Shown piece after piece: positions 3,517 through 18,402 of a stretch of DNA of 28,471 nt. Every line of letters begins with the position of its first letter. The first letter of the stretch is position 1. Origin of the DNA: a virus. The notes beneath the pieces are model-generated. The model worked only from the letters and a program-made list of their open reading frames with translations. It was not told where the DNA came from and did no database searches. A program made the position numbers and the translations under genes. The stretch spans positions 1 through 28,471 of the IMG/VR virus record IMGVR_UViG_3300047994_000119; one strand, 5' to 3'.

Positions 3517-4665
3517 TCAGAATGCGCTAAAGTCAAACAAAAGTTCGAGGTGAGCATGTTCTTTATTTGTACGAGATAAATCCCAGTTTAGAACACCTAC
3601 AAGATTTTTTACCTTTTGATCTACTATACCAGCCATCATATCTTCACTATCGAATGGTAAGTTTAAGAACCATTCCGGTAAATGAACTTCGTCGACAGGG
3701 TATGCAATACTTGATAATGTGTTCTCACTTGTTTCTTTTAGCTTGCAAACAACAATTTTTTGTCCGTCGACAATACGCATAGAATGTTGATCCATGTGCA
3801 TATCTTTTAATCTATTCCACGCAAGACTTGCTGTAACATGTCCGGGGACATGTAAATTACCTACAATCTGTCCTTTCGATTTAGCTATAGCAGCCAACTC
3901 AATTTTTTCCCGATAATGAGATAACTTATTTACGGCTCGTGGAGTACCTTGCTGCCATGGCTTCATATTTTCAAATTTTTCCTTAAACTTTTTAATTTTT
4001 TCAATAACAAAGTTTTCACCTTTATTACATAAGGTATCCAATAAGATCTCAGATAAAAATTCTTGTACAAACTTAGGAGTATCTGCTCTTTTCAAATCTA
4101 ATCCCATTGCCTTTACTTTACCGGGCTTATCACCTACATCAAGTCTAATACCATCTTTATCAAACATCAAACAAGCATAACGTTTCTTTACAATCCATAA
4201 TCCGCTTTCGGAAACTGTTTCTCGTGAACTAGCTATAACACCAGTTGATCTCTTAATTGGAACATTCAATGTAGTATAAAGAAAATCAGGAAATGTTGCT
4301 GATACTGCCTTAGCAAGTGAATTATAAGTATCAATAATGCTTTCTTTTGTCCATTCTACTTCACCTGCATCAATTTCTTTTCTTAGAACTGGATATGCTG
4401 AGAAGTAGCAGGAATTATGTAGTAAAATATTATTACCAAAGAACCAGGGCTTACTTTGATTTTTCATACCAATATCATAGACATATTCATCTTCTGCCTT
4501 GCAAACTTTTCTTACGGATTTTACCTTTGCCTTATGTAATGATATTTCCTTTTGTGGTTGAAATTTAGTAAGATAGTGCTGTACTTCTTTATATAACTCG
4601 GCAGTATCTTTTAATGGCGATAATATTAATTTCTTTAGGGCGTCTGCTAAATCTTTACTTTCCAT
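3517..4665 (-). CDS. 43: DNA polymerase gp43 C-terminal part with C-intein half
   Basis: A 382-residue protein. Residues 1-84 form a leader plus the C-terminal intein half: block F around EYVYDIG (59-65) and block G ending NNILLHN (78-84), followed by Ser85 as the +1 extein residue. From Ser85 the sequence (SCYFSAYPVL) continues polymerase motif C from the partner protein, then the thumb region. The last residues, LLFDFSAF, resemble the clamp-binding tail of T4-type polymerases. Spliced to the N-terminal protein it would give a polymerase of about 982 residues (T4 gp43 is 898). The start ATG has AAGAG 6 nt upstream and lies 9 nt after the TAA of the partner gene, in the same reading frame. 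Before splicing neither half has a complete active site. Confidence 0.85.
   Translation of the reverse strand: MESKDLADALKKLILSPLKDTAELYKEVQHYLTKFQPQKEISLHKAKVKSVRKVCKAEDEYVYDIGMKNQSKPWFFGNNILLHNSCYFSAYPVLRKEIDAGEVEWTKESIIDTYNSLAKAVSATFPDFLYTTLNVPIKRSTGVIASSRETVSESGLWIVKKRYACLMFDKDGIRLDVGDKPGKVKAMGLDLKRADTPKFVQEFLSEILLDTLCNKGENFVIEKIKKFKEKFENMKPWQQGTPRAVNKLSHYREKIELAAIAKSKGQIVGNLHVPGHVTASLAWNRLKDMHMDQHSMRIVDGQKIVVCKLKETSENTLSSIAYPVDEVHLPEWFLNLPFDSEDMMAGIVDQKVKNLVGVLNWDLSRTNKEHAHLELLFDFSAF
4414..4665 (-). other. Split intein, C-terminal half
   Basis: Residues 1-84 of the polymerase C-terminal protein. The core C-intein is about the last 40 residues, with the penultimate His83, terminal Asn84 and following Ser85 needed for splicing. 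The first ~40 residues are charged and helical and replace the place where an endonuclease would sit in a full intein. Confidence 0.8.
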
Positions 4666-4674
4666 ATAAATCTC

Positions 4675-7110
4675 TTATTCCTTTAAAATTTTAATTTTAT
4701 CTTTATCATCTACTTTTATAGATATTAATATATCCGAATCTAGAATATCTAATGGCTTTACAGAAATAAGTTTACCATCTCGTTCAACCATTACAGAATG
4801 ATCTTCTGTGACGGTAATAATATTTCCCAACTCGTCTTCAATTTCGTACAAATATTTAGATACCTTATGTCGATAGATGTATTCAATGTGTCCTAGGTAC
4901 GGTTCGTCGATTTCATCATTATATGTCATTACCATTAAATCTGGATCATAGGCATATTCTTTATCACCATCATTCCAAAATTCGTTACACCCATTAAAAA
5001 GGTCTTCAACAGTTTGTTGACCTTTTGAAGAATAATGAAGTGTAGAAGAAATTTGACTGTCTGTATCTCCGTACACAATAGATTCTCCGTAATGGTCATA
5101 GTTTCCTGTAATCATTTCATTTGTCTTCGCAGCCATATGCTTTGTAATTGTTCTGCCAGTTAATGTAGTAGATTGACCAAGTCTTTGATCAAAGAACCTA
5201 CTACCAGCATTTAATAATGCACCATAAGCCGAGTTTAAATTAATCTTCTTTACAAGCTGACGTTTATCCCAGAATCCTATAATTCTTTTTAACGCCTTTT
5301 GATCTCTATGAATTGCTTTACCATCTTTTACCATCAGGCTGTGCTGATTCATATATTGAATTACACGCTTCTTAGAACCTTCGTCGATAAGTTCTTTTAA
5401 CTTTTTAGGTTTATATACTTCGGATTCATGATATGGATTTGCTTTTATTTCTACATCAGTAATATCATCATTTGTAAATATATCATTAGGAACTTTTACA
5501 CCTTCGATTTTAGAATTATCTTCTATATCTGTATAATTTGTCATAATACCTTGTAGTATTTTACGCTCATTATACCAACGTGTTAATAGTCCTGGAATAA
5601 CACCATCGATATCTGTTCTAAATATTGTACCATTAGCACTAATACACCATGGCTGTCCACTAAAGATTAAATCACTAAGTTCTTTTCCTGTAACTTCAAA
5701 TTGCTGACCATCCTCCATATCGAGTATTAGTTTATTAGCAATATCTTTATCGTAGAAATCATTCATTTCGAGAACGTGGAATCTATCGTTCCACCAGGAT
5801 GCAAATGTATGTTTGCTACCCATCGCTTCCCACATAGCTATTTCTTCATTTGTTCTATCAAGTCTAATTTGTCCAACAATAGTCTCGGGGCTCATATTCA
5901 GAGCTCTCATAACAGATGGATACAAAGATTTCATATCAGTAGATGCTATCCACTTATGTAATCCTTTTCTTGGAGTGGCTACCCAGCCACCAGCAGCACG
6001 ATTACTTTCGTTTTCTTTACCGTGTTTTTTATCAGGGCAAATCATATTACGATTATGCGCTTCTATAATAACAGCTTGATCGGTAACTGCTACGGCACCC
6101 ATTGTTGTTTGGATAAGAACGCAGTTAGCATGAGCGATAGAATTTGCTAAGTCTACGAATTGTAATTTTTTATCAAGTTTATCTAATAATCGGGTATCTT
6201 GAATATTATATTCTAAAAACTTCTTGAAATCATCATTATACAATTCGTCCAAAGTACCTTCGTACTCGACTTTTGTTTCATTAAGTTCAATTTCTGCAAT
6301 AGAGTTTAACTTATAACTATGACGTTCTTCGTAGTTATATTTCTTATAAAGTTCGAGATAATCTACGTGTACCCGACCAATCAGATCGTATGTAGATTCA
6401 GTCTTACCGCCGCGTTCAATTTCACGAATCCTTGGTTGTTGATCCCAAAGGCACATTTTTCTTGCTTCTTGTTTTCCCAGTACTTTTTTAATTCTATTTA
6501 CAATATAAGGAATATCATAAAAAGAACTATTCCATCCACTGAGTATATCTGCATCTTCGATAACATCCATAAAAGCTTCGAGCATTTCTCCTTCTTTATT
6601 AAAGAGAACTACATTGCCGACTTCATCAGCGATAGCTTGAGCTTCTTTCCACGATAATGTGTCTGGTGGCACAGCTAGACAGATAATTTCATCAAGCCAT
6701 TGTAGATGCACGGAAATAGAAGTAATCATATTATCAGCATCTGCAGGATCTGACCAACCTGATTCTTTATCAAAACTAGTTTCGATATCGAAAAAAGCAA
6801 CATTAAGTACAGGTGCATCAACATGCTGGTAATTTTGTGCTAAACAACGAAAAATAGGATCAACATCTGTTTCCCATTTTTTTACATTACCCGATAAGGT
6901 CTTTAGAAGTTTTTGTTTTTCTGTATAGGTACGTGGCGAGATTTTCTTTACAGAATCACCGTAAATAGTCTTATGTGTACCTCTCGGATCTGATATATAA
7001 AAATGAAAGTCAGGTTGAAATTCTCGGTAAACTCTCTTGCCGTTTACTCTTTCTACTACCTTGATTGTTTCTGCTTCGCCATTTTTTTTAAAATAGGAAT
7101 CTACGTACAT
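4675..7110 (-). CDS. 43: DNA polymerase gp43 N-terminal part with N-intein half
   Basis: An 811-residue family-B replicative DNA polymerase fragment. Exonuclease motifs: DIE at 108-110 (Exo I), N194/D199 in WNSSFYD (Exo II), Y301/D305 in YNIQD (Exo III). Polymerase motif A is DMKSLYPS (392-399), motif B is KKINLNSAYG (621-630), and motif C begins YGDTD at 680-684. At Ser685 the sequence turns into an intein: about 127 residues with a block-B-like NIITVTEDH, ending at a TAA. The remaining polymerase is encoded by the next gene. The insertion point is the same YGDTD/S site used by archaeal Pol inteins, including the split PolB of Nanoarchaeum. It follows the DsbA-like gene directly, under the promoter at 7404-7432. 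Proofreading polymerase activity is expected only after trans-splicing. Confidence 0.9.
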   Translation of the reverse strand: MYVDSYFKKNGEAETIKVVERVNGKRVYREFQPDFHFYISDPRGTHKTIYGDSVKKISPRTYTEKQKLLKTLSGNVKKWETDVDPIFRCLAQNYQHVDAPVLNVAFFDIETSFDKESGWSDPADADNMITSISVHLQWLDEIICLAVPPDTLSWKEAQAIADEVGNVVLFNKEGEMLEAFMDVIEDADILSGWNSSFYDIPYIVNRIKKVLGKQEARKMCLWDQQPRIREIERGGKTESTYDLIGRVHVDYLELYKKYNYEERHSYKLNSIAEIELNETKVEYEGTLDELYNDDFKKFLEYNIQDTRLLDKLDKKLQFVDLANSIAHANCVLIQTTMGAVAVTDQAVIIEAHNRNMICPDKKHGKENESNRAAGGWVATPRKGLHKWIASTDMKSLYPSVMRALNMSPETIVGQIRLDRTNEEIAMWEAMGSKHTFASWWNDRFHVLEMNDFYDKDIANKLILDMEDGQQFEVTGKELSDLIFSGQPWCISANGTIFRTDIDGVIPGLLTRWYNERKILQGIMTNYTDIEDNSKIEGVKVPNDIFTNDDITDVEIKANPYHESEVYKPKKLKELIDEGSKKRVIQYMNQHSLMVKDGKAIHRDQKALKRIIGFWDKRQLVKKINLNSAYGALLNAGSRFFDQRLGQSTTLTGRTITKHMAAKTNEMITGNYDHYGESIVYGDTDSQISSTLHYSSKGQQTVEDLFNGCNEFWNDGDKEYAYDPDLMVMTYNDEIDEPYLGHIEYIYRHKVSKYLYEIEDELGNIITVTEDHSVMVERDGKLISVKPLDILDSDILISIKVDDKDKIKILKE
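4678..5058 (-). other. Split intein, N-terminal half (Pol motif C site)
   Basis: Residues 685-811 of the polymerase N-terminal protein. Ser1 follows YGDTD. A segment with LFN then YAYDPDL resembles the layout of the Nanoarchaeum PolB N-intein, from memory. Block B carries TVTEDH with the expected Thr and His. No LAGLIDADG or HNH domain is present, so it is a mini split intein. Confidence 0.8.
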
Positions 7111-9095: not shown

Positions 9096-11303
9096 TTATC
9101 CGTACCTTTGTGCTAACGCAACTTCTAATCTACCCCAGGTAAAGGAGTCAGAATTGTATTGAGTATTATCAAATGTTACCAAGTATTGTTTGTTAGCTAC
9201 CGGAAATAACATAGGGTGAGGCTGAGTGGTTGAACCACCCGAAAAAGTAAATGCAAGCGATCCTTCAAAAATCATGTTTTGATTATAGATTCGACTCGAT
9301 GTACTAGCACCTGCCGGTCCACCTACGATCACATGGTATTGTCCGCTATTATAAACAAGCTTTGCTCCTTCGTATCCTGTATGAGTTGGGTCTGATCCAA
9401 TTGCTATCCAATTTATGAGATCAGTGCTATAAGCAAGTGCTGCATAAAATGGGCTTCCAGCAAAAGTCGTGTTTGTTGTAATAGCATATCCAATAAGCCA
9501 TCTCGAATTAGCTGAATCGTATACCATCATTGCATCGTAGGCACCGGGATTAGATCCAGTCTGTGGAAGATTTAACTGCGTCATTCCCGAAACAACATTT
9601 GATCCTGTAAGTATATCACCTGATGTAAATAGCCCGTAAATAGTTTGAATTGAGCCACCGAAACCATTACCCCAGGTTCCGATAATCATTCGTCTGTTTC
9701 CGTTAGGGTAACGAATAATATGTGCTGATACATCTCCGTAAATTTTACCACTTCTTGAAACCATAATAACTGAATTTAACGTAGTATTTCCTGTAGATAG
9801 ATCAAGTGTAATTACTCCGGTCGACCCAGAACCGGTCGGGTCAGGAATAGTTGCTGAAAGCTGAACCTGTGTTCCATTTACATATGGAGAACCATCTTCA
9901 TTTGTAACAACAGTAAGATCTCGAATACCTACACCACCGAAACGACCTATAGTGAGATCTTGATAAGACCATGTTGAATTTCCGCCGCCATTAGCTAAAT
10001 TAAATCCTGCAGTCCATCCAACAAGATTTCCTATAATTCTAGGATCAAAATAGGGAGACAGATCAGACATAGTAATTGCTGACCATCCATTACCGGTGTC
10101 TAACCAAGCAACCGCTGAGGTTCCTACAATTGATAAGGCTACTCTATAAGATCCACTAATATAAGGGATTGAAACCGTATTAAGGAAGTTTGATGTTCCG
10201 TTGATTTTAGCTTGTATAAACATTGTGCCTGCTAAATGATCTATAGCAGCCAAAATAAAGTTGTTTACGTCCTTAACTAGGCCGACTCCACTGATATCGT
10301 ACCCACTTGCACTAGAATTTATAATGGTAGGATTTACAGATACAAATACCTGAGGCATTATGAGAGTCATAGTGTTCTGTTTAATTAAATCATTTTCAGA
10401 TCCGGTATGTGTGATTGTCATAGCATTTCCGGCAATGGATGTCACGCCCGGTGTATTTTCACTGTACTTTGTAAACTGGCCGGTGTCAGATGAAAATGTT
10501 TCAATATAATCAATTAAAGTAGAAGGCTGAGGTTGAAACCATGTAGTGTATGTAGGAGTAAAAATTGCAATCGACGATAAAAGCTGATCTACATTTGTAG
10601 GGCTTGGAAAAGGTCCTGTAGGCACTGGACATGTATTACCGGTGTACCTGGCTACGCCATTTGTAATTCTGACTTCATCAATATATCCATTCATAAATTC
10701 GACATCAGCACGATCAGATCCTATAAAAAGCTGATATGGATTTGACCCAAATGAAGATCCATTCACAACAGTATCGAGTGCTCCATCCACATACATGCGA
10801 AGCTGTGATCCGTTCATAACCCATACAATAAAATGCCATGAATTAAGTGACATTACTATACTACCAGTAATATTTGTACCTGTGCTACTGTAAAAAAATA
10901 TTCTAGGTGGACCGTTTGGAGTCAGCGCACATGACCAACCAACATCACCGCCGGGTTGTCTTTTCGATACAACACCTCGTGCTCTATTTGTACTATCATT
11001 TCCTGTAACATAAACCCAGGCCTCAATAGTGGCACTTGTGCCCGATGGTATATCCAATACAGAAGTATTAGGAGTAGTAATATATTGCCCTGATCCATTT
11101 ACTAGCAGAGATGAAGGACCCCATTTACTCTGAGTTTCGGACATCGAGGCATTACCGCCACTTGTAAATTGAAGATGATTAACACTCGAATCAATAAAAG
11201 ATGTACTTCCTGTTGTACCATCAAGATGAAGTAAAAGAGCTACATTTGCTATATATGGATCGGGGCCCGGATTTCCTCGATGTCTACTAAGTACAGGAAT
11301 CAA
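9096..11303 (-). CDS. Tail fibre/receptor-binding protein with LamG and beta-propeller
   Basis: A large virion fibre-type protein (735 residues from the TTG at 11303; an ATG at 11327 would add 8). The TTG is preferred because GGAG lies 7 nt upstream and TTGA overlaps the stop of the previous fibre gene. Residues 20-230 form a laminin-G/concanavalin-like jellyroll, with strands such as ATIEAWVYV, LRMYVDGAL and the closing GYIDEVRITNGVARYTG. The C-terminal ~270 residues repeat blade-like units (GDVSAHIIRY, YDAMMVYDSANSRWLIGY, YEGAKLVYNSGQYHVIVGG, PHPMLFPVANKQYLV), similar to a GH43/GH32-type five-bladed propeller with candidate acidic residues in the first three. It probably binds or trims host surface glycans. 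Enzymatic activity is inferred. Confidence 0.75.
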   Translation of the reverse strand: MIPVLSRHRGNPGPDPYIANVALLLHLDGTTGSTSFIDSSVNHLQFTSGGNASMSETQSKWGPSSLLVNGSGQYITTPNTSVLDIPSGTSATIEAWVYVTGNDSTNRARGVVSKRQPGGDVGWSCALTPNGPPRIFFYSSTGTNITGSIVMSLNSWHFIVWVMNGSQLRMYVDGALDTVVNGSSFGSNPYQLFIGSDRADVEFMNGYIDEVRITNGVARYTGNTCPVPTGPFPSPTNVDQLLSSIAIFTPTYTTWFQPQPSTLIDYIETFSSDTGQFTKYSENTPGVTSIAGNAMTITHTGSENDLIKQNTMTLIMPQVFVSVNPTIINSSASGYDISGVGLVKDVNNFILAAIDHLAGTMFIQAKINGTSNFLNTVSIPYISGSYRVALSIVGTSAVAWLDTGNGWSAITMSDLSPYFDPRIIGNLVGWTAGFNLANGGGNSTWSYQDLTIGRFGGVGIRDLTVVTNEDGSPYVNGTQVQLSATIPDPTGSGSTGVITLDLSTGNTTLNSVIMVSRSGKIYGDVSAHIIRYPNGNRRMIIGTWGNGFGGSIQTIYGLFTSGDILTGSNVVSGMTQLNLPQTGSNPGAYDAMMVYDSANSRWLIGYAITTNTTFAGSPFYAALAYSTDLINWIAIGSDPTHTGYEGAKLVYNSGQYHVIVGGPAGASTSSRIYNQNMIFEGSLAFTFSGGSTTQPHPMLFPVANKQYLVTFDNTQYNSDSFTWGRLEVALAQRYG

Positions 11304-14300
11304 GTTAAATCTCCACCAAGTATCCATGTATCTGGATTTACTTTTGTAATCATAATATTAGAAAATTGAGTTCTCGGAGTATAACTTGAGGAAGTAAGTA
11401 AAGTAACTGTACCTCCATCACCGACAATTGTAGTTTGTCCAGTTCCAGTAGGAATAATTAGAAATTGAGTACCTACCCTAAAGTTTGCAGAAGCAATACT
11501 AGGAATTATTATTTGATTAGCTCCTGAATTAAATATTGTAACGACTCCATAATATCCAGTTGATGCTGGTGCATCTTGTAATTGCAATTTATATGAAGAG
11601 CCTGTTTGTGCATTTACTGGAAGTCCGGTAGGACCAGCACAAGATTTTCCTAAAAATACATTCATCACTGATACATATTGCGGCTGCGAGGTCAACCTGA
11701 TAACTGTACCTTGATTGAGCGCTGGTGAATCGCCGGGTGGTACAGAGACTACAGGTGTAGTCCATGTAGCAAAGGTATCGGCACTTTCGGACCAAAACCA
11801 ACCTTGATCAGTATACTTGTCGAAATAAATTCTCCAATTTCCACTATCCGTTTTTACAAGTGATGGTCCTTCAATAGGAAAACCAAATCCGGCCCAGTTA
11901 GTGCTGCCGTCCTGCACGGTAGTATAGCCCGATGTGAGAGAGGTAGAAGTCGCATAACCCAACATCTGTGCTAAGTTATTTTTAAACCAAAGATAGTATG
12001 TTCCGCTAATCTTAACGATAGTAGGATCTAATAATGATGAAGGGAACCCACTACCGGTAATCTGAACAGGTGATGTCCAAGATCCGCTTACATTTGTTCC
12101 TGTTGTTGGATGAATTTCATATATGTTAAATCCATTTACATGGTCGCCGTTGGAACTAGCACAGAAAATTAAATGTATAGATCCGTCGTCGTCTATAAAC
12201 CATTCGGGCGCCCACACAAATTGAACACCTGTAATTGCAGTAACATCTATATTTGGAAACTGAGTCCAATTTACTAAATCAGTAGAAGTAACAAGTCCAA
12301 TGCTTGTCGTAGATCCAGCATATGGATTATTAATAGGAGGATTAGTAAATGCTACCCACCAAGCACCGTTAATGTAGGCCATGGTTGGATCACGGACTGC
12401 GCCAGTTGACGGAGTAAAAGCATCTCTAATAAGCCAATTCCAACTTTTTCCATCAGTAGAAACTGCTAAATGAAGTGTCATGTCAGCATTTTGGAAAGTG
12501 CTCATTATAAATGGATTTCCGGTTAATGCTGATCCCGTTGGTGCTGCCCAGACTGGTGCTGCTCCATCAACTGCCGTTAATACATTACCCGGTGTCGGCA
12601 GAACTGAGTTAATTTGCCATTCACCATTTGGTAATATACGAAGCTGCTCGGTGTTACCAGTTGAAACAATGAAATTACCGCTAATATTTCCAGGACCAGT
12701 AGAATTGAATGTGTTGTATCCAACAACAATAGAAACATCTGGGGTTGATCCAGACGTATTAGTGGTGCTACTATTTCCAGAACTAATTATAATCTTGCCG
12801 GGGGAGCCGGCAGTTGTATCAGTCCAATTGCTGCTTCCAGCAGTTATTGAAATATTTCCTGCTGATCCGGTACCTGTAACATATCCACTGGTAAGCATTA
12901 TATTACCGGTTGATGATGTTCCTCCGGATGGTGCTGTATTAACAGTAAAATTTCCGCTTTGTTGAGATAAACTTGACCCGGTATTAAATGTTATATTTCC
13001 GCCCAGGCCGTTATTAGGTCCGCTGTTACCCGATATAAAGGATATAGAACCGCCGTTACCACTTGATGTAACGCTTCCAGTAGTAAATGTTAAATTACCT
13101 GCATTACCATTCTGAGTTGAGCCAGTTGTAATATTGATTGGGCCTGCACTACTATTCTGAGTCGAACCCGAAACAATAGATATACCTCCACTGTTCGAGT
13201 TAGATGATGTACCACTAGTGATTGTTATACTACCTGCATTGCCATTTGGATTATTACCGGCATAGATACTAACATTACCCGTATGCGATCCATCTAAAGA
13301 GTTACCGGCACCGAGTATCAAATCACCAGCAGTACCGTTGTCTGAATCACCGGATTTGATTGTTATATTTCCGGCTTGAACGTTTGGAGAATTTGCGGTT
13401 GTAATAAAGACTGAACCTGTGGGTCCGCCACTATTTAATCCTGTTGTAATTAAAACATTTCCGGTTGGGGCGCCGCCGCCGGTAATTTGTCCGGAAGAAA
13501 TTGAAATTGTTCCCGTCGGTCCTGCAATCTGATCTGCGGTAACAATAGTAATTGCACCTGTTGGTTCATTTGGATGATATCCTGCACCAGAAGTAAGTGT
13601 GATTGAACCCCCGGGGGAACCGATACCGGCTGTTAGAACTATACTGCCACCCAGGTTACCAGGATAATCTCCGTATGTAGGATCGTTTAATATTCCGGCA
13701 GTATTACCGGCAGTAATATTTATTGATCCACCAAAATCTCCATTCCCGGCAGTAAGATTTAAGATTCCACCGACAGAAGTACCCACGGTGTTTGCTGTAT
13801 TGGTAGTATCCCCATTTCCTGCGGTAATATTTATAGCTCCGCCGCCTGCATTACCACTACCCGAAATTAATTGAACATTAGCACCTGATCCGGATGTCGA
13901 TGAACCAGCACCAAGAAAAAGCGCACCTGGTACAGTTGCTGATCCAGCAGAAAGAATAACCGATGAAGCTCCTGTAGTACCAGGGGATGTCATACCAAGA
14001 AGTGCATTTCCCGTATTGCTACTATTAGTAGCTGTCATTATAGACACCGTAGAGTTGGGATTAGAAACGCTACTTACACCAGTAGTTGAATTAACCTGAA
14101 GTGAGTTATTCGAGACAATATACGTTAGGTTAGGAGAACTCGAGACCGATGGTCCAGTTCCGTATACAATTTGATTTAGAGGGATGGAGATTGTTCCGCC
14201 GCTGCCGCCTCCATCAACATTAATAAATGCTTTCTTTACTGAATCATATTGTAACGTTTGACCATCTACAAGATCTTTTAAATAAAAGGTCGGTACATAT

Positions 14301-14335
14301 TGATTTAATAAGCTGTTCATTCCCACAATAGACAT
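11300..14335 (-). CDS. Giant tail fibre: Gly-rich beta-solenoid plus GH43-like propeller
   Basis: A 1011-residue virion protein. The ATG at 14335 is chosen because GGAG lies 7 nt upstream and a late promoter box 29 nt upstream; the frame extends further but into RNA-like DNA. Residues 1-45 (FYLKDLVDGQTLQYD) look like a virion attachment segment. Residues ~130-560 are a long run of 15-20-residue repeats of the type GNAGSITITSG, a probable beta-solenoid shaft. Residues ~600-885 form a propeller with GH43-like blade starts: RDPTMAYINGAWWV, WAPEWFIDDDGSIHL, LLDPTIVKISGTYYLWF and EGPSLVKTDSGNWRIYF, giving the Asp/Asp/Glu arrangement of that clan. The last ~110 residues are a beta-rich tip. It is likely a receptor-binding depolymerase. 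Its polysaccharide target is unknown. Confidence 0.8.
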   Translation of the reverse strand: MSIVGMNSLLNQYVPTFYLKDLVDGQTLQYDSVKKAFINVDGGGSGGTISIPLNQIVYGTGPSVSSSPNLTYIVSNNSLQVNSTTGVSSVSNPNSTVSIMTATNSSNTGNALLGMTSPGTTGASSVILSAGSATVPGALFLGAGSSTSGSGANVQLISGSGNAGGGAINITAGNGDTTNTANTVGTSVGGILNLTAGNGDFGGSINITAGNTAGILNDPTYGDYPGNLGGSIVLTAGIGSPGGSITLTSGAGYHPNEPTGAITIVTADQIAGPTGTISISSGQITGGGAPTGNVLITTGLNSGGPTGSVFITTANSPNVQAGNITIKSGDSDNGTAGDLILGAGNSLDGSHTGNVSIYAGNNPNGNAGSITITSGTSSNSNSGGISIVSGSTQNSSAGPINITTGSTQNGNAGNLTFTTGSVTSSGNGGSISFISGNSGPNNGLGGNITFNTGSSLSQQSGNFTVNTAPSGGTSSTGNIMLTSGYVTGTGSAGNISITAGSSNWTDTTAGSPGKIIISSGNSSTTNTSGSTPDVSIVVGYNTFNSTGPGNISGNFIVSTGNTEQLRILPNGEWQINSVLPTPGNVLTAVDGAAPVWAAPTGSALTGNPFIMSTFQNADMTLHLAVSTDGKSWNWLIRDAFTPSTGAVRDPTMAYINGAWWVAFTNPPINNPYAGSTTSIGLVTSTDLVNWTQFPNIDVTAITGVQFVWAPEWFIDDDGSIHLIFCASSNGDHVNGFNIYEIHPTTGTNVSGSWTSPVQITGSGFPSSLLDPTIVKISGTYYLWFKNNLAQMLGYATSTSLTSGYTTVQDGSTNWAGFGFPIEGPSLVKTDSGNWRIYFDKYTDQGWFWSESADTFATWTTPVVSVPPGDSPALNQGTVIRLTSQPQYVSVMNVFLGKSCAGPTGLPVNAQTGSSYKLQLQDAPASTGYYGVVTIFNSGANQIIIPSIASANFRVGTQFLIIPTGTGQTTIVGDGGTVTLLTSSSYTPRTQFSNIMITKVNPDTWILGGDLT

Positions 14336-14347
14336 AGTGGATCTCCA

Positions 14348-14372
14348 GATAAATATCGTTATAGTATTTATC
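14348..14372. promoter_or_regulatory. Divergent pair of late promoter boxes
   Basis: GATAAATA on the plus strand (14348-14355) and the same octamer on the minus strand (14372-14365) form a perfect inverted repeat with a 9-nt spacer. The minus box lies 29 nt before the giant fibre start. The plus box points toward the omega-RNA-like element at 14464. Confidence 0.5.
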
Positions 14373-14463
14373 AAAAAGTTTGAATATGAATTACCGGTGA
14401 CACTATGATTTATTGATACAGAAGGCCATTGGACGACAAATATTTGATTCCGATGTTTATATA

Positions 14464-14603
14464 GAGCGTAAAACCATACGATCTTTAGTCGTATGGATGT
14501 AAGCGAGTTTGAAGCCACTTGTTGATAAGAGGCATATGACTCAAGTTGATGAGGTATCGATAAAACAGGAAGCTACTGGACCTTTAGTCCACAGGTAGTT
14601 CAC
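14464..14603 (+). ncRNA. Omega-RNA-like element, copy 1 (IS605/TnpB-type right end)
   Basis: Starts with a 46-nt module (14464-14509) holding an 8-bp hairpin CCATACGA/TCGTATGG around TCTTTAG, followed by ATGTAAGCGA. It ends with GGAAGC and a second hairpin (CTAC+TGGAC / GTCCA+GTAG, loop CTTTA) followed by GTAGTTCAC at 14595-14603. From remembered IS200/IS605 elements, a GAAGC-hairpin-GTAGTTCAC end is typical of the right end and of TnpB omega-RNA, where the guide begins after TTCAC. No TnpB or Y1 transposase gene is present here. The 3' part is antisense to the last codons of the 91-residue tail gene. It could be a transposon remnant, an orphan guide RNA or a regulatory hairpin. Confidence 0.5.
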
Positions 14604-15367: not shown

Positions 15368-17581
15368 TTAAGCCTGTACAGAAATCTGAACTGGTTCTGT
15401 AATGTCATATTTAATATCTCCATTATTAAGAGTAAATATGACGTGCCCTCCATTAGATAACTTGCCAAACAAAATCTCTTTAGATAATGGTTTCTTAATT
15501 TTAGTTTCAAAGAGTCTCTCGAATGGTCTTGCACCCATTTTAGGATCGTATCCTTCTTTGGCTAGCAACTCTCTAACTTCAGAAGTAACAGTCAATGTAA
15601 TATTTTTAGATGCAAGCATTTCTTCAGTCTTCTCGACTTCTGCGTTAACAATCAATGCCATTTCTGTCATTGTAAGTTTAGTAAATTTAACTATAGAATC
15701 TAAACGATTACGAAATTCAGGACTTAAGAAATTCTTAATTTCTTTATCTACTGCACCAGAATTATCTTGATCACCAAACCCGATTTTTAATGTCTCGGCA
15801 TCTCGGGCACCGAGGTTAGCTGACATAATAATAATTACATTAGAGAAATCAACAGTCTTACCCTTAGCGGAAGTTAATCGTCCATCATCCATAACTTGCA
15901 ATAAAACTGTTAATACATCGGGATGAGCTTTTTCAATTTCATCGAGCAATAAAACGCAATTTGGATTTGAGTCAATTTTTTGTATAAGTTGCCCTTCGCC
16001 CATTTTACCTTCGCCGTGACCGACATATCCCGGAGGAGCACCAATTAACTTAGCGACGGTATGTTTTTCCATATATTCTGATAAGTCGAAACGAATAAGC
16101 TCTACACCAAGTGCCTGAGCAAGTTGCTTCGCAGTATATGTCTTACCAGTTCCTGTGGGGCCTGTAAACAAAAAGCTACCGATAGGCTTAGAGGGAGTCC
16201 GAAGACCAGCTTTAGACATATAGATAGCTTCGACTAATTTATCAATTGCATCATCTTGACCATAAACTTTGTTCTTAACTCTCGTTGCAAGATTCAATAG
16301 TTGATCATTTGCTTTTATATCCATCATTTGCGAAGGAATACGTGCAATCTTTGAAGCCTGATCAAGAACAATTTGTTTGGTAACAATTGCTTCTTCCATC
16401 AATTTAGATACTGCTGCTGCCGAATCCATTATATCGATAGCTTTATCTGGAAAGAATTTTTGCTTCATATAACGATCTGCCAGATCAACACACAGATCCA
16501 AAGAACCTTCCTCAAAAGTAACACCGTGAAATTTTTCGTATTGATATGCAATACCATTTAGTATTAATTTTGTTTCTGCAGCAGATGGCTGATTAATATC
16601 GTATTTTTGGAAACGACGCAGCAGGGCTTTATCCTTTTCAAAATGTTCATGAAATTCATCATATGTTGTAGCACCGACACACATAAGTTGTCCCTTAGCC
16701 AACATTGGTTTAAGTAGATTGCCAGCATCCATTTGACTACCGGTAGTAGATCCTGCACCAAGTATCATATGAATTTCATCAATGAACATAATAACATTTC
16801 CGAGTTTCTTGACTTGATCGAGTACGCCCTTCAATCTTTCTTCAAAGTCTCCACGGAATTTAGTACCTGCAAGTAATGCACCTAAATCCAAACTATATAT
16901 TACTTTTTCTTGCAATGCCTTAGGCACTTCTTTTTTAGTAATTTTTAGTGCAAGACCTTCGGCTAACGCAGATTTTCCTACGCCTGGTTCACCGACATAA
17001 ACTATGTTGTTCTTCTTACGACGTGCAAGAATTTCAATAGTGTCTTTTATTTCTTTCTCTCGGCCAACTACCGGATCTATGAATCCATCTATAGCTTCCT
17101 TATTTAAATTTTTTGCATATAAGTCTAATGGAGTTTCATCAGCCTGACCTTGTTTATCTTCAGACTTACGGAATTGAGCAATCAGTTTCTCACGAGTCAC
17201 ACCATGTTTTGATAGAAAATAATAAGCATGACTAGTTTCTTCGCTTAATATACTAACAAGCACGGCTTCATTTGTAAGTTCATTTCTACCACTAAATACA
17301 AGCTGAGTTAATGCACGCTGAAATGTACGATTTAGTACCTGTGTACGCTTTGCCGGAACATCCTTTAGCGCCACAGGTTTCTTCATTGCAGGATCACCAA
17401 GAAATGCAATAGTATCTGCTTTAATTTTTGCTGGTTGAGATCCAATTCCGAGCAATAATTCGTTAATATCTTTTTCATGTAATAAAGATAGCAGAATATG
17501 TTCTAAAGTCACATATTCATGATTATTATCATTAGCAATCGAAACTGCTCGTTCTACCATCTTTTCGGCTTTTTTACTCAT
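15368..17581 (-). CDS. clpA: ClpA-type AAA+ unfoldase
   Basis: A 737-residue Clp ATPase with the ClpA layout. It has an N-terminal Clp repeat domain (residues 1-140), a first AAA+ module with Walker A GEPGVGKS near 196 and Walker B VIMFIDEIH, and a second with Walker A GPTGTGKT near 472 and Walker B CVLLLDEIEKAHPDV. The C-terminal small domain includes GARPFERL. No long middle coiled coil is present, so it is ClpA- rather than ClpB-type. IGF near residue 600 sits where ClpA carries its ClpP-docking IGL loop, so the enzyme could deliver substrates to host ClpP; no clpP is seen here. AAGGA lies 5 nt before the start, and the gene follows the DnaJ-like gene by 8 nt. It probably remodels or degrades host or phage proteins. 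Confidence 0.9.
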   Translation of the reverse strand: MSKKAEKMVERAVSIANDNNHEYVTLEHILLSLLHEKDINELLLGIGSQPAKIKADTIAFLGDPAMKKPVALKDVPAKRTQVLNRTFQRALTQLVFSGRNELTNEAVLVSILSEETSHAYYFLSKHGVTREKLIAQFRKSEDKQGQADETPLDLYAKNLNKEAIDGFIDPVVGREKEIKDTIEILARRKKNNIVYVGEPGVGKSALAEGLALKITKKEVPKALQEKVIYSLDLGALLAGTKFRGDFEERLKGVLDQVKKLGNVIMFIDEIHMILGAGSTTGSQMDAGNLLKPMLAKGQLMCVGATTYDEFHEHFEKDKALLRRFQKYDINQPSAAETKLILNGIAYQYEKFHGVTFEEGSLDLCVDLADRYMKQKFFPDKAIDIMDSAAAVSKLMEEAIVTKQIVLDQASKIARIPSQMMDIKANDQLLNLATRVKNKVYGQDDAIDKLVEAIYMSKAGLRTPSKPIGSFLFTGPTGTGKTYTAKQLAQALGVELIRFDLSEYMEKHTVAKLIGAPPGYVGHGEGKMGEGQLIQKIDSNPNCVLLLDEIEKAHPDVLTVLLQVMDDGRLTSAKGKTVDFSNVIIIMSANLGARDAETLKIGFGDQDNSGAVDKEIKNFLSPEFRNRLDSIVKFTKLTMTEMALIVNAEVEKTEEMLASKNITLTVTSEVRELLAKEGYDPKMGARPFERLFETKIKKPLSKEILFGKLSNGGHVIFTLNNGDIKYDITEPVQISVQA

Positions 17582-17589
17582 TAGTTTCC

Positions 17590-18402
17590 TTAGATATCAA
17601 TAGTTTCTCTACGTGACATAGCCTTCAGGGCTTTTATTTCTTCTTCAGATAAGTTTTTCGGAATAGTAATAGATATTCTTATAAGCAAATCACCTGTTTT
17701 ATTTAGTTCGGGATTTTTCATTCCTTTGCCTGATAATTTTACAATCTGCCCATTTTGTATACCGGCAGGTATACTAAACTGTAACTTACTTCCGTCGAGG
17801 TGCTCAATAATTGCTGTTAAACCAATCATTGCTTCAATTGCATTTATTTCAATATCGACCAACAAATCATCATTAGCTCTTTTAAACTTATAATGCGGCT
17901 GTATGTCAATTCTAAACATTTTGCCGCCGGCATATAGTCGTGTCGCTGGTCGAACACCTTGCGGAATAACAAGATGTGTATCTTTATCAACTTTTACTGT
18001 TTTACCTGTGTAAGCATCAGTAAGATTGATATTTACTGTAAATGTCTGAGGAGAAGACGAAGATTGTGTACCGAACCCGTGTTCGTTAAATTTAAATCCG
18101 GCGCGGCCACCAAATATATTATTAAATATTTCATGAAACGCTGAAGGATCTATATTTTGCGTAAATCCTCCATTTCCTTGTTGGAAATCATGTCCATAAT
18201 TGTCATAGGAAGTACGTTTTTGAGGATCAGAAAGCATTTCATATGCTTCTTTAGCTTCTTTAAATTTTTCTTCTGAACTCGGGTCATCCGGATTTCGGTC
18301 AGGATGAAATTTCATCGCAAGTTTGCGATAAGCTTTCTTAATATCGTCATCGGATGCATTTTTAGGCACGCCAAGGACGTCGTAATAGTCCCTTTTGCTC
18401 AT
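17590..18402 (-). CDS. dnaJ: Class B DnaJ/CbpA-like co-chaperone
   Basis: A 270-residue J-domain protein. The J domain is residues 1-70 with the HPD motif at 33-35 ([10 protein letters not shown]) that stimulates Hsp70. A Gly/Phe-rich segment follows (about 75-115). The C-terminal substrate-binding beta domains (from [15 protein letters not shown]) match DnaJ/CbpA. The CxxCxGxG zinc-finger repeats of classical DnaJ are absent, so this is the CbpA-like class B form. No dnaK is present, so it would act with host DnaK. It lies between IF-1 and the ClpA-like gene on the same strand. Its Shine-Dalgarno is weak (AAAGAAA). Confidence 0.92.

What the first reader, a model, noticed from the sequence alone, without database searches (positions are those of the whole stretch)
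3517..7110. Replicative DNA polymerase split inside motif C by a split intein
The N-terminal gene carries all exonuclease motifs plus motifs A and B, and stops being polymerase exactly at YGDTD. The next gene resumes at S-CYFSAYPVL after an intein end ...LLHN. Both precursors are therefore catalytically incomplete, and polymerase activity should depend on protein trans-splicing. The same insertion site is known for archaeal Pol inteins, including the split PolB of Nanoarchaeum. Split inteins are known in phage helicase and nucleotide reductase genes, but I do not know of this arrangement in a T4-type polymerase.
Basis: partly seen in the sequence, partly recalled or inferred. Interest (0 to 1): 0.85.

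Follow-up and report, generated by a model that had tools for sequence, protein, structure and literature searches.

The report
Jumbo-phage DNA polymerase with split intein
A large phage makes its main DNA-copying enzyme as two separate proteins whose ends form a self-splicing "split intein" that should join them; the find is real, but such split phage polymerases were already known, and the new part is that the homing-endonuclease gene that usually sits in the gap has been lost here.

Summary
On the minus strand, gene 4675-7110 encodes a family-B DNA polymerase up to YGDTD, followed by a 127-aa N-intein. Gene 3517-4665 begins with an 84-aa C-intein (...ILLHN) and resumes at SCYFSAYP. Profile hits, a confident AlphaFold model (pLDDT 90; Z 23.6 to the solved Aes123 PolB1 split intein, 9HTH), intact catalytic residues and purifying selection on both halves support a working trans-splicing intein. 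Fifteen close relatives carry an empty site with uninterrupted YGDTDSCYFSAYP, which fixes the junctions. The novelty claim fails: split PolB inteins at this DTD|S site are known in T4-like Aeromonas and Campylobacter phages and in MIJ3/PA5oct-type jumbo phages. The site also differs from the archaeal/Nanoarchaeum pol-c site (YGD|TDS) by two residues. Related contigs include apparently re-fused cis inteins. Verdict: a new, endonuclease-free member of a known kind. Splicing itself is inferred, not shown.

The parts
5059..7110 (-). N-extein: family-B DNA polymerase residues 1-684 (exonuclease domain, motifs A and B, motif C up to YGDTD)
   Evidence: Pfam DNA_pol_B_exo1 5e-23 and DNA_pol_B 8e-23; aligned with L011 and Paride
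4678..5058 (-). N-intein, 127 aa, Ser1 at 5058-5056; block B TEDH
   Evidence: Pfam Intein_splicing 3.6e-7, TIGR01445 above cut-off; 9HTH 2.6e-14 with the read-through query
4678..4704 (-). Last 9 codons of the N-intein gene (KDKIKILKE), absent from L035/L036, possibly a fossil of the 3' end of a deleted homing-endonuclease gene
   Evidence: Similarity to the 3' end of the L036 endonuclease gene, shuffle p 0.02; 0.15 with L035 and L011. Suggestive only
4666..4677 (-). Stop codon TAA plus 9-nt spacer; keeps the two genes in one frame
4414..4665 (-). C-intein, 84 aa: helical extension residues 1-45 (4531-4665) and core residues 46-84 (4414-4530) ending in HN
   Evidence: Pfam Intein_splicing 4e-4; conserved in L011, L035, L036; extension pN/pS 0.26, core 0.17 against L011
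3517..4413 (-). C-extein: rest of the polymerase, 298 aa, Ser+1 at 4413-4411, stop at 3519-3517
   Evidence: 54% identity to PA5oct-type polymerase C part; intein-free relatives with YGDTDSCYFSAYP

Best explanation
The phage's replicative family-B DNA polymerase is made as two polypeptides. The 127-aa tail of the first and the 84-aa head of the second associate and fold into one HINT (intein) domain. By class-1, cysteine-independent splicing they join YGDTD to SCYFSAYP, giving a 982-residue polymerase and releasing the intein halves. Expected steps: N-to-O acyl shift at Ser1, transesterification to Ser+1 (itself a motif C residue), cyclisation of the last Asn, O-to-N shift. The element descends from a 'fractured gene' in which a Vsr-like homing endonuclease gene sat between the halves; here that gene has been deleted, leaving the split held by a single in-frame stop. 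Shown: sequence, junctions, predicted fold, conservation, relatives. Inferred: that splicing occurs and that the phage needs it.
For: Intein profiles on both halves. Best solved match is the Aes123 PolB1 split intein 9HTH, E 2.6e-14. AF2 model of the read-through intein has pLDDT 90; VIA-align Z 23.6, rmsd 2.0 A over 158 residues to 9HTH, aligned range 1-215. Ser1, TEDH, penultimate His, terminal Asn and Ser+1 are present. Fifteen intein-free close relatives show the uninterrupted junction. pN/pS between window and L011: IntN 0.24, IntC extension 0.26, IntC core 0.17, exteins 0.19 and 0.24. L035 and L036 carry a 336-aa endonuclease in the gap; the L011 relic is its first 23 residues (18/23 identical to L035) plus its last 11 (10/11). 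The 369-kb record of sister lineage L012 has one PolB gene, no PolA hit and no intein.
Against: No expression or splicing data. Block A is divergent (SQISSTL instead of SxxGDT). Both Pfam intein matches are below the gathering score. The Shine-Dalgarno sequence of the second gene is unremarkable. The single-stop, same-frame layout leaves read-through or a nonsense/assembly artefact formally open for this one contig, although relatives L011, L035 and L036 are split with the halves in different frames. The endonuclease fossil in the window itself is only suggestive.
Confidence: 0.9

Rival explanations
1. A cis-splicing mini-intein interrupted by a single nonsense codon or an assembly/sequencing error; the real product is one continuous precursor of about 1197 residues.
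For: The two genes are in the same frame with only TAA and three codons between them; cis inteins at this site exist in related contigs (L054-L057, L041-L043).
Against: The nearest intein-bearing relatives L011, L035 and L036 are split with the halves in different frames, and begin the C gene at the same Met (MKSKDLADALKK...). A same frame is expected by chance in one case in three. The window's N-intein ends in nine codons not found in L035/L036.
Confidence: 0.06
2. TAA is read through at some rate, so that both a cis-splicing precursor and the two trans-splicing proteins are made.
For: Same frame, one stop.
Against: TAA is the commonest stop in the window and is used by 12 of 21 genes; no tRNA gene was found in the window; no known read-through signal was identified.
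Confidence: 0.03
3. The intein is dead and the two halves form a two-subunit polymerase without covalent joining.
For: Block A is divergent; split, unspliced family-B polymerases occur (Aes123 gp43 also has a plain gene break between gp43A and gp43B).
Against: All catalytic residues are kept and both intein halves are under purifying selection like the exteins; the break is inside motif C, two residues after the second catalytic Asp begins, where an unspliced 127-aa tail and 84-aa head should disturb the active site (inference).
Confidence: 0.05

Closest known systems
Split DNA polymerase B intein of jumbo phages MIJ3 / PA5oct (Wroclawvirus)
   Same: Same site YGDTD|S, two genes, 46% identity over 97 aa of the N-intein, extended C-intein, jumbo-phage PolB (PMC6892783)
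   Different: There an endonuclease gene of about 560 codons, of another type, lies between the halves; here none. Polymerase about 53% identical.
Aes123 PolB1 split intein (T4-like Aeromonas phages; PDB 9HTH; engineered CL/CLm inteins) and CP21 PolB1
   Same: Same DTD|S site, Ser1/Ser+1 cysteine-independent chemistry, HINT fold
   Different: 27% identical over 158 structurally aligned residues; C-intein of 39 aa without the 45-aa extension; Vsr-like endonuclease gene present; a further gene break in gp43
'Fractured genes' of Dassa et al. 2009 (split inteins with a free-standing, often Vsr-like, endonuclease gene)
   Same: Relatives L035, L036, L038, L050, L051 and L059 have this organisation and L011 keeps a relic of the endonuclease
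   Different: The window has no endonuclease gene. The original paper is not held here; known from citing papers and general knowledge.
Nanoarchaeum equitans split PolB (NEQ068/NEQ528), pol-c allele
   Same: Replicative family-B polymerase broken inside motif C by a split intein
   Different: Inserted at YGD|TDS, two residues earlier (PMC549080); weak sequence similarity (5oxx, E 0.006)
SCTP-2 and KP13-7 / phiKp_21 PolB inteins
   Same: Jumbo-phage PolB, motif C, related intein (SCTP-2 49% over matched parts)
   Different: Inserted at YGD|TDS; SCTP-2 is a cis mini-intein, KP13-7 is split with a 325-aa endonuclease

Membership tests
Class-1 intein (HINT splicing domain) | Splicing blocks A, B, F, G with Ser/Cys1, TxxH, penultimate His, terminal Asn and Ser/Thr/Cys+1 | tested here: met
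   Ser1, TEDH, HN and Ser+1 present and conserved in relatives; rest of block A divergent
Class-1 intein (HINT splicing domain) | HINT horseshoe fold | tested here: met
   AF2 pLDDT 90; Z 23.6 to 9HTH, many further inteins above Z 14
Class-1 intein (HINT splicing domain) | Precise insertion in an otherwise intact host protein | tested here: met
   15 intein-free relatives with YGDTDSCYFSAYP
Naturally split intein | Two halves encoded by separate genes | tested here: met
   Two ORFs with a stop between; relatives L011, L035, L036 split in different frames
Naturally split intein | Protein trans-splicing activity | not testable with these tools
   Needs co-expression of the two proteins
Fractured gene (Dassa 2009) | Free-standing homing endonuclease gene between the intein halves | tested here: not met
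   9-nt spacer in the window; gene present in L035 and L036, relic in L011
pol-c intein allele (archaeal PolB, Nanoarchaeum) | Insertion at YGD|TDS | tested here: not met
   Window site is YGDTD|S; pol-c site from PMC549080
Aes123 / MIJ3 PolB split-intein allele | Insertion at DTD|S of a phage family-B polymerase with Ser1 and Ser+1 | tested here: met

The most novel reading that the evidence does not exclude
This phage lineage shows the late part of a split-intein life cycle: an endonuclease-bearing fractured gene (L035, L036), decay of the endonuclease (L011, L047), an endonuclease-free split held by a single in-frame stop codon (the window), and re-fusion to a cis intein at the former start codon of the C half (L054-L057, possibly L042). 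Splitting of an essential polymerase would then be reversible, and this locus sits one codon from re-fusion.
Probability: 0.4. Interest if true: 0.5.

Novelty: new member of a known kind. Interest (0 to 1): 0.33.

Why it matters
An essential replication enzyme that exists only after protein trans-splicing is striking but already documented. This member adds an endonuclease-free split PolB intein with Ser chemistry and an unusually long, conserved C-intein extension, possibly of use as a cysteine-independent splicing tool. It also comes with a set of close relatives (empty, endonuclease-bearing, endonuclease-relic, endonuclease-free, cis) that makes the birth and loss of split inteins traceable.

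Tried and rejected
Rejected: same insertion site as Nanoarchaeum pol-c (two residues off). Rejected: no precedent in T4-type polymerases. Rejected as main reading: sequencing error or cis intein (nearest intein-bearing relatives are split in different frames). A scan of bacterial/archaeal genome contigs found no relative. A first intein query used the wrong frame. The Dassa 2009 and Bhagawati 2019 papers are not held. The endonuclease fossil in the window was tested against shuffles and is only suggestive. Grouping of the four close intein-bearing loci as one clade by polymerase descent was rejected (AU p 0.0018). The inteins are not markedly more alike than their host genes, so recent horizontal spread is not shown. 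Stop-codon recoding: TAA and TGA are both used as stops, no TAG was seen, and no tRNA gene was found.

Full report
What is there. The window is a 28.5-kb IMG/VR virus record. On its minus strand lie two adjacent genes, 7110->4675 (811 aa) and 4665->3517 (382 aa). The first is a family-B DNA polymerase (Pfam exonuclease domain 5e-23, polymerase domain 8e-23) with exonuclease motifs (FFDIET, SGWNSSFYDIPY, YNIQDTRLLDKL), motif A (DMKSLYPS), motif B (KKINLNSAYG) and motif C up to YGDTD at residue 684. After that come 127 residues that match Pfam Intein_splicing (3.6e-7) and NCBI's intein_Nterm model above its cut-off. The second gene starts with 84 residues matching the C-terminal part of the intein profile (4e-4) and then continues the polymerase at SCYFSAYP.

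The junctions are shown directly by relatives. A scan of viral contigs with the second protein returned 16 loci. In 15 of them (L012-L026) the polymerase is uninterrupted and reads YGDTDSCYFSAYP. One, L011, carries the same split intein. Two further scans with intein alignments gave many more intein-bearing loci, including two close ones, L035 and L036.

It should work as an intein. Ser1, the TEDH of block B, the penultimate His, the terminal Asn and Ser+1 are conserved. Both halves evolve under purifying selection comparable to the exteins. An AlphaFold2 model of the read-through intein (stop read as Gln, a device for folding only) has mean pLDDT 90 and aligns to the Aes123 PolB1 split intein 9HTH with Z 23.6 and 2.0 A over 158 residues; 9HTH is also the best hit by sequence (2.6e-14). 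The N-intein is acidic (-15) and the C-intein basic (+4), as expected for the electrostatic capture described for split inteins (PMC12707363). Splicing itself was not tested.

The two genes share one frame: between the last codon of the first and the ATG of the second there are only TAA GAG ATT TAT. In the nearest intein-bearing relatives the halves are in different frames. L035 and L036 have a 336-aa endonuclease gene in the gap, with repeat motifs (RHGEExGxxKWEEYxERQRYT) like those of the KP13-7 and Aes123 endonucleases; L038's copy matches Pfam REase_MTES_1575 at 5e-9, and Aes123's is annotated as a VSR endonuclease. In L011 the gap holds a 34-aa ORF made of the first 23 and last 11 residues of that endonuclease, 18/23 and 10/11 identical to L035, so a large internal deletion removed the rest. 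L047 keeps a C-terminal piece of such an endonuclease. In the window nothing recognisable is left except, perhaps, the last nine codons of the N-intein gene, which resemble the 3' end of the endonuclease gene of L036; shuffling gives only p about 0.02, and 0.15 with L035 and L011.

Cis relatives. L054-L057 carry a contiguous cis intein in which the end of the N-intein runs directly into MKKEFTNILNA..., the start of the separate C gene of L059. On the polymerase tree L054 is the sister of the split L059 and nested among split inteins with well-supported branches. This favours re-fusion of a split intein over descent from a primitive cis form. L041-L043 are further cis forms. Among loci where both halves were found, split forms with gaps of 977 nt or more were commonest (20 rows); endonuclease-free splits were five loci (window 9 nt, L044 109, L011 115, L084 155, L047 171), and cis forms were seven rows including near-identical contigs.

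Mobility. In a C-extein tree the window is sister to the intein-free L012 (88%), and the four close intein-bearing loci are not a clade (AU p 0.0018). The intein therefore comes and goes in this lineage. The inteins are not markedly more similar than the flanking polymerase, so recent transfer is not shown and repeated loss fits as well.

Is the polymerase essential? The 369-kb record of L012 has one PolB gene, no PolA hit and no intein. By inference the window's phage depends on this polymerase; the window fragment cannot itself exclude a second one elsewhere in its genome.

Comparison with known systems. The MIJ3 paper of 2019 reported a split PolB with a split intein and an endonuclease gene in a PA5oct-like jumbo phage (PMC6892783); that group has the same site and also an extended C-intein. 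Aes123 PolB1, from T4-like Aeromonas phages, is at the same DTD|S site, splices in trans (about 30% efficiency for the natural form) and has a crystal structure (PMC11923092). CP21, Tenacibaculum PTm1 and Lak phages show the same kind of site. The archaeal pol-c site used by Nanoarchaeum is YGD|TDS (PMC549080), two residues away; SCTP-2 and KP13-7 use that one. So this is a new member of a known kind, distinguished by loss of the endonuclease, the same-frame single-stop layout and the 45-residue C-intein extension, which is conserved (pN/pS 0.26 against L011) and predicted helical but of unknown role.

Scores. Interest 0.33: a clean and correct observation, but with direct precedents. The evolutionary series around it is the most interesting part.

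Noticed in passing
window 4666-4677: The N and C genes are in the same frame, separated only by TAA GAG ATT TAT; without the stop the frame would be one continuous precursor of about 1197 residues.
   Followed up: yes
L011:5886-6011: 34-aa ORF that consists of the two ends of a 336-aa homing endonuclease (as in L035) joined by an internal deletion.
   Followed up: yes
L054:3232-3804 (also L055-L057; L042:4016-4507): Contiguous cis inteins at the same PolB site that look like re-fused split inteins, joined at the former start Met of the C gene.
   Followed up: partly
L004 (KP13-7) and L005 (SCTP-2): Jumbo-phage PolB inteins two residues away, at YGD|TDS: one split with a 325-aa endonuclease gene, one a cis mini-intein.
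   Followed up: partly
251-kb record holding L047 (G003): Eight intein-profile hits spread over several places in one phage record, some with stops inside, suggesting inteins in several genes.
   Followed up: no
window 9096-14518: Two large neighbouring proteins, one with a concanavalin A-like domain (743 aa) and one with a glycosyl hydrolase family 43 domain and a phage tail-protein match (1072 aa).
   Followed up: no
window 15368-18402: A ClpA/B-like AAA+ ATPase gene next to a DnaJ-like gene on a phage fragment.
   Followed up: no
window, predicted genes: No TAG stop among the 21 genes examined (12 TAA, 9 TGA).
   Followed up: partly
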